Below are positions 55,999 through 64,000 of a stretch of 64,000 nt of DNA, piece after piece (the stretch's first letter is position 1; each line of letters opens with the position of its first letter). The notes beneath the pieces were generated by a model, which was not told the DNA's origin, ran no database searches, and worked only from the letters and a program-made list of their open reading frames with translations. Origin of the DNA: a virus; IMG/VR virus record IMGVR_UViG_3300032083_002615, positions 1 through 64,000 of that record; one strand, written 5' to 3'. Position numbers and translations under genes: made by a program.

Positions 55999-56053
55999 AT
56001 GCACATGTTGTGAAAATTGCAAATGTGAATGTAATTGTTGTGGAGATGAGTAG
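55991..56053 (+). CDS. 20-residue metallothionein-like cysteine peptide
   Basis: ATG 55991 has a perfect GAGGAG at 55978-55983 (7-base spacing), and TAG 56051-56053 overlaps the next start. The peptide MSKCTCCENCKCECNCCGDE has 8 cysteines in 20 residues in the pattern CxCCxxCxCxCxCC, with Lys/Glu/Asn between. This is the composition of metallothioneins and plant/fungal metal-chelating peptides, and it could bind several Zn or Cu ions. It is shorter than known bacterial metallothioneins. It is too small for routine gene callers. Metal binding is inferred from composition. Confidence 0.6.
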   Translation: MSKCTCCENCKCECNCCGDE

Positions 56054-56769
56054 TGATTAAATTAACATCATTATTAGTTGAACAAGAACAAGAAAACAAA
56101 TATCCAGAGGATGCACCTAAACATTTTGGTGGTGGTGAGAACATTGATATATTTGGTTATCAAACCAAACACTTTGATATTTGTAGGTCGGCTGTAACTT
56201 TGTATGAAAAGTTAAAAGAAAATGAAGAAGCAAAAGATTTAATCATTCAAACAGCTAAAGATATGGACCATTTGTTTGAAATGGAAAAACAAGTTGTGGC
56301 TCAAGAACCAATGAACCACGACCCAATTGACCACGCCGTTAAATTGTGTAATACGATTTCTTTTCAATTAGGTAGAATTGCAGAAATAACTGGACATGGT
56401 GAAGAAGAGGAAGATACACACTTCATTCAACTACATGTTAATGTAATCATTGATAGAGCTCAAAAACAAGAAATGACTAATGAAGATTTAAGAAAGTGGT
56501 TTAAAAAAGGTGGAACAGGTGGAACTACTGCTGGTGGTTGGGATAGATATAGTTCAACAGGTGAAAAACTTGGTAAATGTGGTGGTGGAAAAGAAGGTGA
56601 AGCATACGCTGCGTGTTTATCTGCAGCAAAAGCAGCAAAACTTGGAAAGAAAGGTATAGCGGCTTTTGTTAATAGAAAAAGAAGAGCACAGAAAAAAGGT
56701 GGTGACCCTAAAAAAGGTGGTGAGAGAAGAAAGGGACAAAAAACCATTAAGGTGAAAACAGGTGCGTAA
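56053..56769 (+). CDS. basic Cys-module protein with head-leader-like N-terminus
   Basis: The GTG start overlaps the previous stop, with GGAG 7 bases upstream. The leader MIKLTSLLVE ends in L-V-E. The middle (30-145) is a helical domain (HFDICRSAVTLYEKLKE, DHAVKLCNTISFQLGRIAE). The C-terminal 85 residues are a basic Gly/Lys module with two cysteines (GGWDRYSSTGEKLGKCGGG, YAACLSAAKAAKLGKKG, GGDPKKGGERRKGQK), a type common in marine viruses and presumed to contact packaged DNA. The stop overlaps the following gene by 8 bases. A virion-internal role is inferred. Confidence 0.6.
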   Translation: MIKLTSLLVEQEQENKYPEDAPKHFGGGENIDIFGYQTKHFDICRSAVTLYEKLKENEEAKDLIIQTAKDMDHLFEMEKQVVAQEPMNHDPIDHAVKLCNTISFQLGRIAEITGHGEEEEDTHFIQLHVNVIIDRAQKQEMTNEDLRKWFKKGGTGGTTAGGWDRYSSTGEKLGKCGGGKEGEAYAACLSAAKAAKLGKKGIAAFVNRKRRAQKKGGDPKKGGERRKGQKTIKVKTGA

Positions 56770-57475
56770 AGCTTGTAATCCAAGAAGAAGAAAACCAGGT
56801 GAGAGTGAAGCTCAATATAGACAAAGATGTGGGCCAAGGCCATTAGGACAAATTAAAATGGGTGAAAAAAAGAATCCAAGAATCCCAAGAAAAAAGGGAC
56901 AACCAGCAGGTTCAAAGAAACATTCTGATTTATACACAGATGAAAACCCAAAAGGAACTATAAAAGGATTAAAGTTTGCAACTGTAAAAGATGCTAAGGC
57001 ATCAGTCAGTAAAATTAAAGGTAGTGGTAAATCACATGCTCATAAGATTCAGGCTGCTGTTGCTATGGAACAAAGAGCAAGAGAGATGGGTAAAACATCT
57101 CAAGCAGCTGTTTATAGAGCATTCATCAATAAGATGAAAAAGATTACTAAACAAAAAAATGAGGGTTGGAGTGAAAAATATAAAAAATCAATTGATTGTA
57201 ACAACCCAAAAGGATTCAGTCAAAAAGCACATTGTACAGGAAAAAAGAAAAAATCGGAGAATGTAATGAAACTTACAAAGTCTAAATTAAGAGAAATGAT
57301 TGAAGAAGAATACTTTAATTATCTTGTAGAAAAAAACGTACCAACAAATCCATCTAAGTGGAGTTATTATAAATCACAAGCTAAAAAGAAGTTTGATGTA
57401 TATCCATCGGCTTATGCAAATGCTTGGGCTGCTAAGATGTATAAAAAAGCTGGTGGTGGTTGGAAAAAGGGATAA
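56762..57475 (+). CDS. modular basic Cys protein, with internal gene 57266-57475
   Basis: GTG start inside the previous gene. The first ~165 residues carry basic modules with cysteines (ACNPRRRKPGESEAQYRQRC, SIDCNNPKGFSQKAHC) and an Ala/Lys helical repeat (HKIQAAVAMEQRAREMGKTS). From residue 169 a new unit begins with MKLTKSKLREMIEEE and continues with PTNPSKWSYYKSQAKKKFDV and SAYANAWAAKMYKKAGGGW. The second unit has its own ribosome site, so the gene probably yields both a long and a short product. The mixed modules recur in marine phage and giant-virus virion proteins. A DNA-condensing, head-located function is inferred. Confidence 0.6.
   Translation: MRKACNPRRRKPGESEAQYRQRCGPRPLGQIKMGEKKNPRIPRKKGQPAGSKKHSDLYTDENPKGTIKGLKFATVKDAKASVSKIKGSGKSHAHKIQAAVAMEQRAREMGKTSQAAVYRAFINKMKKITKQKNEGWSEKYKKSIDCNNPKGFSQKAHCTGKKKKSENVMKLTKSKLREMIEEEYFNYLVEKNVPTNPSKWSYYKSQAKKKFDVYPSAYANAWAAKMYKKAGGGWKKG
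57266..57475 (+). CDS. internal in-frame gene: leader-bearing basic protein, 69 aa
   Basis: GGAG at 57256-57259 lies 6 bases before ATG 57266, in frame with the longer gene. The product begins with the leader pattern MKLTKSKLREMIEEEYFNY and ends it with L-V-E at residue 22, matching the (I/L)xE rule. The mature part (about 47 residues) is basic and aromatic. Starting here fits the pattern of the other leader proteins much better than residue 169 of a longer protein. Confidence 0.55.
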   Translation: MKLTKSKLREMIEEEYFNYLVEKNVPTNPSKWSYYKSQAKKKFDVYPSAYANAWAAKMYKKAGGGWKKG

Positions 57476-58108: not shown

Positions 58109-61078
58109 TTGAACAAACTTGTAGAAGAAATAATTAAACCAATTTTAGAAGCCAATGGTATAAAAAAAGTCATTGGTATTTATGGTGGTAGATTTCAACC
58201 ATTCGGGCCTCATCATTTAAAAACATATAAATGGTTACAATCCAAAGTTGATGAAGCATACATCACAACATCCAATATAAAGAAACCCCCAAGACACCCA
58301 ATGAACTTCAAAGAAAAAGTTAGACATATGTCAAAGATGGGTGTTCCTGCAAATCGTATCATTGAAGAAAAATCACCTTATGTTGCAAAAAATTTAGAGA
58401 AAAAATATGATAAAAATACTACAGCATTTGTTTATGTATTTGGAGCAAAAGATGCTGGTAGATTAGGTGGTGGTGGAAAATACTTTCAAGATTATTTAAA
58501 AAACAAAAAGAATTTAAAGGGGTATGGTGAGAATGGATATTATTTAGTTGCACCACATGTTTCCATATCAGTTGGTGGTAAGGAAGTTAGTGGAACAACA
58601 ATGAGAGAATTACTTGGTTCAGACAAATATGATGATAAACAAAGAGTGAAGTTGTTTAAAAAGATGTTTGGTTATTATGACAAGGGTGTTTTCAATATGA
58701 TGACTAACAAATTTAGTAAAATGTTTGAGGATACTATTCATACGACTTGGGATAATACAAAACCAAAACCAAAAAATCCAAAACACTTTGATAAAAAAGA
58801 CAAAGATTTATTATTTGATTTAGACTTACCAATTAAAGTTGGTGATACGATTATGATGGGTAGATTTAAAAACAAAAAAGTAGTAATAAAAACCATTGAC
58901 TTCAATGATAAAGGTGATTTGATGATTAACGGAAGACCAGCTTTAAAATTTAGAATTATTAAATCAAAAGAAATAGATGAGTTTTTAATCCATAATGATG
59001 TTAAAAAAATATTAGAGGTTTCAAATACTGGAACTGATGGTGTTCAAGGGGTGGATTCAGGTCCAAGTTTAATGTTTAAAAACTCAAATGATTATAAAGG
59101 TAGAGGTAATCAAGAAGCAGAAAAACTTGGTTGGACTGTAATTAATTATATTTTACAAGGTGATATAGATAACTTACCACCAGATGAAAGTGAAATGTTA
59201 GATGGATGGCCATTAGGTCCTCACAATTCTGTTACATACTTACCAGCCGGTATAGGAACAGGAGTTACACCAAATAACCAAGAAAATCTAACTGGTAAAA
59301 AAGGATATAATAAATGGTTAAGGGCTATGAGGACAAAAGCTGAAGAAGTTGGTATGCAATTAATGAAGTTTACCAAACAAGAAAGAGATATTAAAAAACA
59401 AATCGCTAAAGATACTGTGGATACAATTAAACAACAAAAAGAAGAAGAGAAAGAAAAAAAAGTAGATATTAAAGTTGAAGAAAATGTATTTACAAAAGAT
59501 TGGTGGGATGATGTTTTAGTTGAAGTATCTGCAAAAACAAAAAAATTCAAACAAAAGTTAATGAGAAGAGGTATCAAGATAAGATACGATAAAGCAAAAG
59601 CTCAACAAGACTTACAACAAAAATATGGTGGACAAGGTGAAGTTGTTGGAAAGAAATTTGGTTTGAGAAAAGCTTATTATGCAGTTCCTAAAAAAGGATT
59701 TAAGAAAGATACAAAACCAACACTTAAAATTACAAAAAAAGAAATAGATAAATTACAAAAAGATAAAGTGTTGGATAAAGGTAATTTAAAAGTAGTATTT
59801 TCTGAATCTTGGTGGAAAGAAAAATTATTACTCAAAGAAGGTGGAGCATACGGACATATGGCTCATCCATTTGACGACAAAGAATTAACATTCGGTGACT
59901 TGAAAAAAATTATTGAATTAGGATTAGGTGGACAATTGAATCGTGAAGATAATGTTACAGAGAAACTTGATGGACAGAACATTATGGTTAGTTTCAAAGA
60001 TGGAAAACTTATTGCAGCTAGAAACAAAGGACATATTAAAAATGGTGGTAAAACAGCATTGGATAAAAAAGGGATAGCGAGTAAGTTCAAAGGTAGAGGT
60101 GCTATAAGAAATGCTTTCGTTTATGCGATGAATGATTTAGAAAAAGCCATCAAGTCTTTATCAGATAAACAAAGAGATAAGATATTCAACAATGGATATA
60201 ATTTTATGAATTTAGAAGTTATGTATCCATCATCTGCAAATGTAATTGATTATGACATTACACAATTGATATTTCACGGAGCACTGAAATATGATGATAA
60301 GGGAAATGTTAAAGGCGAGGTATCAGGTAGTGGTAGAATACTTGCAGGTATGATTCAACAAAGAAATCAAAACATACAAAAGAAATATTCAATTGGAAAA
60401 CCTGTGTTTTTAGATGTTCCAAAACATCAAGACTTTGGTAAAATGAAAGATAAGTTTTTAGGAAGATTAAGTAAATTAAAAGCTGAATATGGTTTAAAAG
60501 ATAATGATACATTAGGATTGTATCACCAAATGTGGTGGGAACATAAAATATATCAAACATTTGGAAGTAGAAATTTAAGTGGGAAACTCACTCAAGGATT
60601 AGTTAAAAGATGGGCTTTCTTTGATAAATCATATTCAATATCTGATATAAAAAAAGATATGGAAAGATTCAGGTCAGCGAATCCAAAAAGAGAAGATGTT
60701 TTACAAGCAATATTAGATTTTGATAAAACGAATCATAAACAACAAGTGAAAAAAAATATGAAACCATTTGAAGAATTGTTCTTTGAAGTAGGAGCTGAGA
60801 TATTGAAAAATGTAAAAGGATTCATATCAGCTAATCCAAAGAAATCAGTTCAAGGTATTGTAAAAAGATTAGATAAAGCTATATCAGTTGTAAAAAGTGG
60901 TGGTGATGTAAAAAAATTAAAAGTATTGAAACAACAATTAGATAAATTAAATGCGATTGGTGGGACAAAAGCCATTGTTCCAAGTGAAGGTTTGGTGTTT
61001 AAATATAAAGGAAAGACTTATAAATTCACAGGTGCATTTGCACCAATAAACCAAATCACAGGTTTAATTTATTTTTAG
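58109..61078 (+). CDS. NMN-adenylyltransferase-like and RNA/DNA-ligase-like fusion with cleavage-type linkers
   Basis: TTG start with AGAGG at 58098-58102. The leader MNKLVEEIIKPILE ends in I-L-E (12-14). Residues about 18-185 form a nucleotidyltransferase of the NMNAT/cytidylyltransferase type: IYGGRFQPFGPHH (24-36), the HxGH-like site, and SGTTMRELL (about 165-173), the ISxTxxR-type motif. Residues about 578-989 form a ligase-type nucleotidyltransferase: motif I EKLDGQN (Lys619), NFMNLEVMYP (motif III-like) and GLVFKYKGKTYKFTG (motif V). Linkers at 465-475 (WWDDVLVE) and 570-577 (WWKEKLLLKE) repeat a WW...L-x-E pattern. NMNAT makes NAD+; the ligase seals nucleic acid. The fused layout is unlike standard T4 genes. 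Confidence 0.72.
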   Translation: MNKLVEEIIKPILEANGIKKVIGIYGGRFQPFGPHHLKTYKWLQSKVDEAYITTSNIKKPPRHPMNFKEKVRHMSKMGVPANRIIEEKSPYVAKNLEKKYDKNTTAFVYVFGAKDAGRLGGGGKYFQDYLKNKKNLKGYGENGYYLVAPHVSISVGGKEVSGTTMRELLGSDKYDDKQRVKLFKKMFGYYDKGVFNMMTNKFSKMFEDTIHTTWDNTKPKPKNPKHFDKKDKDLLFDLDLPIKVGDTIMMGRFKNKKVVIKTIDFNDKGDLMINGRPALKFRIIKSKEIDEFLIHNDVKKILEVSNTGTDGVQGVDSGPSLMFKNSNDYKGRGNQEAEKLGWTVINYILQGDIDNLPPDESEMLDGWPLGPHNSVTYLPAGIGTGVTPNNQENLTGKKGYNKWLRAMRTKAEEVGMQLMKFTKQERDIKKQIAKDTVDTIKQQKEEEKEKKVDIKVEENVFTKDWWDDVLVEVSAKTKKFKQKLMRRGIKIRYDKAKAQQDLQQKYGGQGEVVGKKFGLRKAYYAVPKKGFKKDTKPTLKITKKEIDKLQKDKVLDKGNLKVVFSESWWKEKLLLKEGGAYGHMAHPFDDKELTFGDLKKIIELGLGGQLNREDNVTEKLDGQNIMVSFKDGKLIAARNKGHIKNGGKTALDKKGIASKFKGRGAIRNAFVYAMNDLEKAIKSLSDKQRDKIFNNGYNFMNLEVMYPSSANVIDYDITQLIFHGALKYDDKGNVKGEVSGSGRILAGMIQQRNQNIQKKYSIGKPVFLDVPKHQDFGKMKDKFLGRLSKLKAEYGLKDNDTLGLYHQMWWEHKIYQTFGSRNLSGKLTQGLVKRWAFFDKSYSISDIKKDMERFRSANPKREDVLQAILDFDKTNHKQQVKKNMKPFEELFFEVGAEILKNVKGFISANPKKSVQGIVKRLDKAISVVKSGGDVKKLKVLKQQLDKLNAIGGTKAIVPSEGLVFKYKGKTYKFTGAFAPINQITGLIYF

Positions 61079-62568: not shown

Positions 62569-62914
62569 ATTACTATTGATATTATTACTATCTTTTTCAT
62601 TCACACAAGACATTTGTGAAGGAACTTGTTTTTCAGAAGAGGAAGTACAGAATATGTATAATAACATAAAAGCTCTTGAATTTAAAAGAGAAACTTGTGA
62701 AAGTGCTTATTTGAATTTTGAAAGTCAATTGGAAGAATGTGATGAATATATAGATGAATGTGATGAACAAGCACAACTGTATAAAGAACAAATTAAAATT
62801 AAAGATGAAATGATAAAAACAATAAAACCAAAATGGTATGAAAACAAATACCTTTGGTTCTTTGGTGGAGTTATATTTACAAGTGGTTCAGTATTTTTAG
62901 CAGGACAATTGTAA
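62558..62914 (+). CDS. exported or membrane protein with coiled coil, 118 aa
   Basis: GTG 62558 has GGAGG at 62548-62552. Translation gives a signal-like hydrophobic N-terminus (TKLLLILLLSFSFTQ), a Cys-containing helical body (CFSEEEVQNMYNNIKALEF, CDEYIDECDEQAQLYKEQ) and a C-terminal span (KYLWFFGGVIFTSGSVFLAG). The frame is open further upstream but those residues only read through the repeat of the previous gene, so 62558 is chosen. Two-ended membrane attachment with a coiled coil resembles a spanin-like lysis protein; unproven. The stop overlaps the terminase start (TAATG). Confidence 0.55.
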   Translation: MVTKLLLILLLSFSFTQDICEGTCFSEEEVQNMYNNIKALEFKRETCESAYLNFESQLEECDEYIDECDEQAQLYKEQIKIKDEMIKTIKPKWYENKYLWFFGGVIFTSGSVFLAGQL

Positions 62915-64000
62915 TGAGTGATTTAAAACAAGCGATACAAAGGGAGTATTTGAAGTGTGCATCTGACCCTGTACATTTTATGAGAAAGTATTGCACTATT
63001 CAACATCCTACGAAAGGTAAGGTTAAGTTTGATTTATACCCATTTCAAGAAAGATGTTTGACAGAGTTTAAAGACAATCGTTATAATATAATTTTAAAAG
63101 CTAGACAATTAGGTATATCTACTTTATCAGCTGGATATGCATTGTGGTTGATGTTGTTTCACAATGATAAAAATATTCTTGTTATTGCAACTGGTAAAGA
63201 CACTGCAAAAAACCTTGTTACAAAAGTAAGAGTAATGTATGACGGTTTACCTCAATGGTTAAAAACTGGAACAGAAGAAATAAATAAATTATCATTAAGA
63301 TTTAAAAACGGTTCACAGATAAAAGCAATTGCATCTAATGAATCAGCAGGTCGTTCAGAAGCATTATCATTATTGATAATTGATGAGGCGGCGTTTATTG
63401 ACAAGATTGATACAATATGGACTGCGGCACAACAAACACTTGCGACTGGTGGTGGTTGTATTGCTTTATCAACACCTAATGGTGTGGGTAATTGGTTTCA
63501 TAAACAATGGATGGGTGCTGAAGAAGGCACGAATGAATTTCATACCATTAGATTACATTGGACAGACCATCCTGATAGAACAGAAGAGTGGAGAAAAGAA
63601 CAAGATAAGATTTTAGGACCTTCACAAGCAGCTCAAGAGTGTGATACAGACTTTCTATCAAGTGGACAATCAGTGGTTGACCCACAGATTCTACAATGGT
63701 ATAAAGATGAATTAACAGAAGCACCTGTTGAGGAGTTGGGAGTAGATAGAGGTTTATGGATATTTAGACAACCTGATTATACAAAAGAATACATAGTGGT
63801 TGCTGATGTGGCTCGTGGTGATGGAACGGATTTCTCAGCTTGTCAAGTGTTTGAAGTTGAAGATATGGAACAATGTGCAGAATATAAAGGACAATTAAGT
63901 ACAACGGATTATGGAAACTTCTTAATTGAAGTTGCAACGAAATATAATGATGCGTTATTAGTAGTTGAAAACAACAATATAGGTTGGGCTACAATACAAA
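62914..64000 (+). CDS. gp17: terminase large subunit gp17 (truncated by window end)
   Basis: Translation from ATG 62914 stays open to the last base (362 codons seen), so the 3' end lies outside the window. The ATPase domain begins after HFMRKYCTIQHP; the Walker A-like loop is KARQLGISTLSAG, and Walker B is LLIIDEAAFI. The coupling region includes CIALSTPNGVGNWFHKQW. The nuclease domain begins with VVADVARGDGTDFSA and LLVVENNNIGW. It packages DNA into the prohead and cuts concatemers, as T4 gp17. The start overlaps the upstream stop, so the small membrane genes and terminase form one operon. Confidence 0.9.
   Translation, partial: MSDLKQAIQREYLKCASDPVHFMRKYCTIQHPTKGKVKFDLYPFQERCLTEFKDNRYNIILKARQLGISTLSAGYALWLMLFHNDKNILVIATGKDTAKNLVTKVRVMYDGLPQWLKTGTEEINKLSLRFKNGSQIKAIASNESAGRSEALSLLIIDEAAFIDKIDTIWTAAQQTLATGGGCIALSTPNGVGNWFHKQWMGAEEGTNEFHTIRLHWTDHPDRTEEWRKEQDKILGPSQAAQECDTDFLSSGQSVVDPQILQWYKDELTEAPVEELGVDRGLWIFRQPDYTKEYIVVADVARGDGTDFSACQVFEVEDMEQCAEYKGQLSTTDYGNFLIEVATKYNDALLVVENNNIGWATIQ

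What the first reader, a model, noticed from the sequence alone, without database searches (positions are those of the whole stretch)
58109..61078. NMNAT-like and ligase-like enzymes in one chain, separated by repeated WW...L-x-E linkers
Seen: an HxGH-like site (GRFQPFGPHH) and SGTTMR motif in the first 185 residues, and ligase motif I EKLDGQN (Lys619) with GLVFKYKGKTYKF near the end. Between them lie WWDDVLVE (ending Glu472) and WWKEKLLLKE (ending Glu577), both followed by plausible domain starts and both obeying the (I/L)-x-E rule like the N-terminal leader. Inference: a polyprotein giving an NAD-making enzyme, a middle fragment and a ligase after cleavage, possibly for RNA or DNA repair or NAD manipulation immediately after injection.
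Basis: partly seen in the sequence, partly recalled or inferred. Interest (0 to 1): 0.78.

Follow-up and report, generated by a model that had tools for sequence, protein, structure and literature searches.

The report
Phage head-cargo polyprotein with NMNAT-like and ligase
One long phage protein strings several enzymes together, including an NAD-synthase-like enzyme and an RNA-ligase-like enzyme, separated by cut sites for the phage's own head-maturation protease, so it is probably a packaged cargo that is cut into separate tools and injected with the viral DNA.

Summary
ORF 58109-61078 (+, TTG, 989 aa) joins an NMNAT-like domain (aa 20-207) to an Rnl1-like ligase (578-989). Over 100 relatives form a module-shuffling family (about 640-1600 aa): kinase, CCA-adding enzyme, HD, ParB-like and other modules come and go around NMNAT and ligase. 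An [LIV]-x-E site sits at a fixed distance before each module, whatever lies upstream: kinase 14/14 distinct contexts, VSAK 8/8, ligase 52/53, NMNAT 37/41 (background 1.3% per position). The genome carries a T4 gp21-type (S77) prohead protease; gp21 cuts T4 Alt after ITE and LTE. Standalone versions of the same modules begin with T4-style leaders ending at the same residue, one of them in this window (50750). In 56 of 124 relatives the ligase site is replaced, at the same codon, by an in-frame ATG behind a Shine-Dalgarno (AAGGAG in 52); the two modes switched at least 10 times on the ligase tree. Best reading: a capsid-targeted cargo polyprotein cut by the prohead protease into about five products, probably for early RNA repair and counter-defence. 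The polyprotein reading is well supported; the NAD-making role is not shown. There is no protein-level proof.

The parts
58109..61078 (+). whole cargo polyprotein gene, 989 aa, TTG start
58109..58150 (+). N-terminal leader MNKLVEEIIKPILE, ending at Glu14; presumed capsid-targeting leader
   Evidence: similar leaders head relatives whose first module is a different one, e.g. MSLKKLVEEITKPILQE before a kinase in L025
58151..58729 (+). NMNAT-like nucleotidyltransferase module, aa 15-207, ending MFE207
   Evidence: PF01467 above its cut-off; NMNAT fold Z 12.4 over 19-213; profile match to archaeal NMNAT E 4e-6
58730..59017 (+). small module with VGDTIMMGRF (label 'SH3', by eye), aa 208-303, ending ILE303; begins with a disordered stretch
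   Evidence: mobile among relatives and found in HTVC008M gp128; pLDDT under 50 at 209-238; E303 invariant in A4
59018..59524 (+). module with DSGP (label 'DDGP'), aa 304-472, function unknown, ending LVE472 after WW
   Evidence: [LI]xE 8-13 residues upstream of D[DS]GP in 51 of 53 contexts; fold not predicted with confidence
59525..59839 (+). alpha/beta module (label 'VSAK'), aa 473-577, ending LKE577 after WW; absent in L013, L019 and L038
   Evidence: 8/8 distinct contexts with [LIV]xE at offset 0; pLDDT about 84 at its core
59840..61078 (+). Rnl1-like ligase module, aa 578-989
   Evidence: invariant EKxDG, R61, K63, E126, EGxV, K395; aligns with the T4 Rnl1 group from motif I to III; standalone in LR756500
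50750..51514 (+). standalone zeta/AAA_33 P-loop kinase with leader MVKLKQLLEE|G; the same module is fused into the polyprotein of other phages
   Evidence: PF06414 E 2e-10
62914..64000 (+). large terminase (continues beyond the window); portal and S77 prohead protease follow at record positions 64538-66331 and 68475-69095

Best explanation
This is a head-cargo polyprotein of a T4-related phage. Its leader takes the chain into the prohead core (inferred). The phage's gp21-type S77 protease then cuts after (L/I/V)-x-E at each junction, releasing inside the capsid an NMNAT-like nucleotidyltransferase, three small modules and an Rnl1-like ligase, which enter the host with the DNA (inferred). Shown here: modular architecture, placement of the sites, the protease gene, exchange of a module between standalone gene and fused chain, and the alternative internal start before the ligase. 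Likely role, at about even odds: an early RNA/tRNA repair and nucleotide-cofactor kit against host defences that cut tRNA or drain NAD. Relatives with the internal start probably also make free cytosolic ligase.
For: Site placement before five module types and at alignment ends without chosen anchors, 32% against 8% at random. Exact loss of aa 473-577 in L013, L019 and L038. Standalone ligase with leader MKFLKSYEEFLNENLILE|GGSYGH and standalone kinases with leaders ending at the same residue. Kinase alone in 7 records, fused in 6, both in none of 18. S77 protease in this genome (E 1e-27) and in 13 of 14 records with the family; T4 gp21 cuts Alt after ITE-6 and LTE-619 (PMC5694885). ATG plus Shine-Dalgarno in place of the Glu codon in 56 of 124 relatives, at least 10 switches on the tree. 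Co-carried CCA-adding enzyme, HD and PNK-like kinase modules.
Against: No protein data: packaging, cutting and injection are inferred. [LIV]xE also occurs inside modules. MFE207 has Met at P3. The contexts counted share ancestry, so the binomial p values are too small, and the anchors were chosen after looking. The HxGH motif is incomplete in this protein. The ligase match to Rnl1 is weak (E 5.5e-4, probability 30%).
Confidence: 0.8

Rival explanations
1. An ordinary multidomain enzyme with flexible linkers: the LxE motifs are incidental or part of each module's N-terminus, and the chain works uncut in the infected cell.
For: The chain is a single open frame and no cleavage has been observed. 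Linkers rich in Glu are common.
Against: At the exact offset almost only Glu is found before unrelated upstream modules. Orthologous standalone genes begin with a short leader ending there. When the Glu is lost before the ligase it is replaced by a start codon with a ribosome site.
Confidence: 0.1
2. A polyprotein as above, but the main purpose is NAD+ restoration by the NMNAT-like module, with the ligase as a DNA nick sealer for the injected genome.
For: NMNAT fold with NadM as best match. KxDG and EGxV motifs occur in DNA as well as RNA ligases. Phages are known to rebuild NAD+ (PMC9503650).
Against: NadV, which accompanies NadM in phages (PMC9503650), was not found in Mel-JY01, LR756508, G001 or the other records with NMNAT. 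The first HxGH His is Gly here. Structure and profile matches favour RNA ligases, and the co-modules are RNA-repair-like.
Confidence: 0.15
3. The internal ATG before the ligase is the main source of ligase in those relatives, and fusion to the upstream modules is a translational by-product rather than cargo design.
For: The Shine-Dalgarno is nearly invariant in DNA.
Against: About half of the relatives, including this one, have no such start and keep (L/I)xE instead. Most members with the start keep an LxE about 18 residues upstream.
Confidence: 0.1

Closest known systems
T4 internal head proteins and Alt (targeting leader, gp21 processing)
   Same: Short N-terminal leader ending in (I/L)xE, S77 protease, T4-type head genes, presumed injection; Alt is also cut near its C-terminus at LTE-619 (PMC5694885)
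   Different: T4 proteins are single enzymes that lose end pieces; here five modules are strung together with sites between them and are shuffled among phages
Polyvalent proteins (Iyer et al. 2017, PMC5512222)
   Same: Large multidomain phage proteins near virion genes, predicted to be delivered with the DNA, with kinase, peptidase and other effector modules
   Different: That study proposes processing by embedded metallopeptidases or C-terminal assemblin-like peptidases; here the sites match a separately encoded prohead protease, and the window's chain has no recognised peptidase module
SPN3US/phiKZ head proteins cut by S80 protease
   Same: Several cuts per protein by a prohead protease after a three-residue motif ending in Glu (PMC10052503)
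   Different: There the cuts remove propeptides; no release of several enzymes from one chain is described in the passages read
NadM-type NMN adenylyltransferase
   Same: Fold, GRFQP start, SGTxxR motif
   Different: First HxGH His missing in this clade; no Nudix domain in this chain; NadV not found alongside
T4 RNA ligase 1 (Rnl1)
   Same: Colinear motifs I, Ia and III; EGxV and Lys motifs at the C-terminus
   Different: About 230 mostly helical residues between motif III and motif IV; not reached by sequence search of the PDB; Mel-JY01 carries a separate canonical Rnl1 as well

Membership tests
T4-type gp21-processed internal head protein | N-terminal leader ending in (I/L)xE | tested here: met
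   MNKLVEEIIKPILE|A; leaders shared by relatives with other first modules
T4-type gp21-processed internal head protein | S77 prohead protease in the same genome | tested here: met
   PF03420 E 1e-27 at record 68475-69095; 13 of 14 related records
T4-type gp21-processed internal head protein | Packaged in the head, cut and injected | not testable with these tools
   needs virion proteomics
Polyvalent proteins | Several unrelated effector modules in one chain, encoded near virion genes | tested here: met
Polyvalent proteins | Embedded peptidase module for processing | tested here: not met
   no peptidase family in the window's chain; HEIDH sites seen by eye in L015, L018 and L039 only. The authors report such modules in about a third of members, so this is a frequent, not universal, feature
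NMN adenylyltransferase | Nucleotidyltransferase fold of the NMNAT type | tested here: met
   Z 12.4, rmsd 3.1 over 162 residues to NadM 2r5w; CoaD and NadD score nearly as high, so substrate is not told
NMN adenylyltransferase | HxGH motif | tested here: not met
   FGPHH in the window's protein: second His kept and invariant, first is Gly; HSGH or HRGH in other clades
NMN adenylyltransferase | SxTxxR motif | tested here: met
   SGTTMR; S, G, T and R invariant in 21 rows
T4 Rnl1-type RNA ligase | Motif I KxDG and motif IV EGxV | tested here: met
   invariant in 37 rows
T4 Rnl1-type RNA ligase | Family score and fold | tested here: inconclusive
   PF09414 17.8 bits under the cut-off of 27; hhalign to three Rnl1 proteins E 5.5e-4, probability 30%; VIA Z 5.0 to Rnl2 and 4.2 to Rnl1 on a model of pLDDT 68

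The most novel reading that the evidence does not exclude
T4-related phages carry a swappable multi-enzyme repair kit as one polyprotein that is loaded into the capsid and cut there by the prohead protease; the last enzyme, the ligase, is released either by a protease site or by an internal translation start at the same codon, giving virion-delivered enzyme and, in some lineages, cytosolic enzyme too.
Probability: 0.45. Interest if true: 0.85.

Novelty: new variant of a known kind. Interest (0 to 1): 0.76.

Why it matters
Head proteins injected with the DNA are known from T4 (Alt, IPI), but as single proteins that lose end pieces. A shuffled polyprotein with protease junctions would make the LxE rule a guide for finding injected cargo, with its exact mature ends, in phages known only from metagenomes. 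It makes virion-delivered RNA repair directly testable. The exchange of Glu for a start codon at one position is a rare natural experiment on how a protein is released.

Tried and rejected
Chance LxE in linkers: rejected. Kinship of the ligase with DUF6267 (KWDG protein beside the cargo genes of HTVC008M): no profile support, E 0.13. Sequence search of the PDB for the ligase: no ligase found. First hhalign run against Rnl1 used a wrong option and is void; one search replaces it. Fold of aa 208-472: low confidence and hardly covered by the fold search; left open. WW elements as N-terminal leaders of other genes: no convincing case in the loci held. IMG/VR scan with the LR756508 chain: no relative. 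Literature: four papers hold 'polyprotein', 'prohead protease' and 'bacteriophage'; of these I read only passages of the polyvalent-protein study and judged the other three by title and the start of the abstract. A second search with other terms found nothing. This is not proof that nobody has described it.

Full report
Observation. ORF 58109-61078 on the + strand is a single open frame of 989 codons with a TTG start behind AGAGG. The window is part of a virus record of 69,451 bases. Just downstream lie a T4-type terminase, a T4-type portal (PF07230, E 7e-73) and an S77 prohead protease (PF03420, E 1e-27). By terminase the nearest named phages are Microcystis phage Mel-JY01 and Flavobacterium phage immuto, at 54% identity.

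A family of shuffled chains. Hundreds of IMG/VR stretches match. I compared 116 non-duplicate chains of 500 aa or more, some of them cut off by contig ends. In nearly all of them the ligase is last, which is partly a result of searching with it. Other modules stand before NMNAT, between NMNAT and ligase, or are missing: P-loop zeta/AAA_33 kinase, CCA-adding enzyme (L067, phrog_2244 E 2e-65), HD, ParB-like (L002, below the Pfam cut-off), a C45 hydrolase-like module (L049, E 5e-8, below the NCBIfam cut-off), an HEIDH zinc site seen by eye, and small modules labelled here SH3, DDGP, VSAK and AVRG. The four small-module names are labels, not assignments.

Junctions. Each module type is preceded at a fixed distance by [LIV]-x-E, whatever stands upstream. 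Distinct upstream contexts with Glu at that place: ligase 52/53 (ATG forms set aside), kinase 14/14, VSAK 8/8, AVRG 7/8, and NMNAT 37/41 within six residues. Background is 1.3% per position and 7.7% for any of six positions. The binomial p values overstate independence, because contexts share ancestry, and the anchors were chosen after seeing the sequences. A test without chosen anchors, at the ends of BLAST alignments, finds [LI]xE within 5 residues at 32% of start junctions against 8% at random, highest of 200 draws 11.5%. L013, L019 and L038 lack aa 473-577 between two such sites. Reading the window's chain by these rules gives a leader and five modules: 1-14, 15-207, 208-303, 304-472, 473-577, 578-989. 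The site at 207 is MFE, a loose fit.

Why a head protease. T4 gp21 cuts Alt after ITE-6 and LTE-619, and T4 internal proteins carry a short targeting leader removed by gp21 (PMC5694885; PMC9958956). The standalone ligase of LR756500 reads MKFLKSYEEFLNENLILE|GGSYGH. Standalone kinases read MVKLKQLLEE|G (this window, 50750), MVNLKQLLTE|G, MIKLQNIIE|G, MVHLKQILLE|G, HTVC008M MIPFILKE|G and Melnitz MKTFAELQE|G; the bar falls at the residue where the junction falls in fused chains. Of 18 records searched, 7 hold the kinase alone, 6 hold it fused, none holds both; most records are fragments. S77 is found in 13 of 14 records with the family. The fused ART-like and kinase protein gp053 of Agrobacterium phage Atu_ph07 has VTE at the same offset, and its gene lies in the CDS 31-76 cluster, in which 29 proteins were found in virions by mass spectrometry (PMC6102473); whether gp053 itself is among them I could not read.

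A second way to free the ligase. At the ligase junction 67 of 124 relatives have (L/I)xE, 56 have ATG in the same codon, one has Cys. In 52 of the 56 the DNA reads AAGGAG, nine bases, ATG; the other four are close variants. AAG is 23% of Lys codons and GAG 20% of Glu codons in these genes. Such an in-frame signal was seen only twice elsewhere in all chains. On a tree of the ligase the state changes about 15 times, at least 10 forced by well-supported branches (quick search, a few long branches). Recombination at the junction may account for part of this. Most distinct contexts with the ATG keep an LxE upstream, typically 18 residues before, so both a packaged and a cytosolic ligase are plausible; this is inference.

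Domains. aa 19-213 take the NMNAT fold, Z 12.4 to NadM, with CoaD and NadD close behind; archaeal NMNAT is also the best profile match. The first His of HxGH is Gly in the window's clade. NadV was not found in Mel-JY01, LR756508 or G001, though most other records searched are fragments. aa 578-989 keep the ligase motifs invariant. The profile aligns motif I to III with three Rnl1 proteins including T4's, E 5.5e-4 but probability 30%. The best-ranked PDB rows of Foldseek are mainly RNA ligases, all at E above 0.1; the viral library gives family members and then RNA ligases at E 0.0025 and weaker; VIA Z is 5.0 at best. The ligase model is of low confidence (pLDDT 68). So 'Rnl1-like ligase' is likely, not settled.

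Function. A ligase together with CCA-adding, HD and PNK-like kinase modules in relatives points to RNA or tRNA repair early in infection; such phage repair systems are described in general (PMC7824862; PMC9503650). The window's own chain carries only the ligase and NMNAT-like modules, with the kinase as a separate gene. The role is inference, at about even odds.

Limits. I found no protein data for these phages. Cleavage, packaging and injection rest on analogy with T4 and on the sequence pattern. The count of relatives is a lower bound, since each scan keeps the best 80.

Noticed in passing
window 56053-57475: Neighbouring ORFs also look like head cargo: 56053 starts VIKLTSLLVE|Q, and 56858-57475 has an internal leader-like MKLTKSKLREMIEEEYFNYLVE|K, perhaps a second small polyprotein.
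   Followed up: partly
L089:8254-10590 (Atu_ph07 gp053): ART-like (YRGM) region fused to the same kinase with VTE|GVND at the same offset; several neighbouring paralogues start MRWEQLNE or MRWEQLTE.
   Followed up: partly
L177:7132-9855 (Flavobacterium phage immuto gp088): A 907-aa protein upstream of the terminase, annotated NadR, seems by eye to join a pol-beta-like region, a HIGH-type nucleotidyltransferase and two HExxH sites; Pfam gives only a sub-threshold M91 match.
   Followed up: partly
L087:7245-8477 (HTVC008M gp127): DUF6267 protein with leader MYNDLLVE|D and ligase-like KWDGAP and PEGYVA motifs; possibly a further packaged ligase-like family.
   Followed up: partly
L086: A relative lies on a contig of a genome assembled as a Euryarchaeota archaeon; possibly a viral contig placed in the wrong bin.
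   Followed up: no
junctions at Glu472 and Glu577 and relatives: A recurring F(T/S)K-x-WW-x(2-4)-L-x-E element marks many internal junctions; it was not found as an N-terminal leader, and why it holds two Trp is unexplained.
   Followed up: partly
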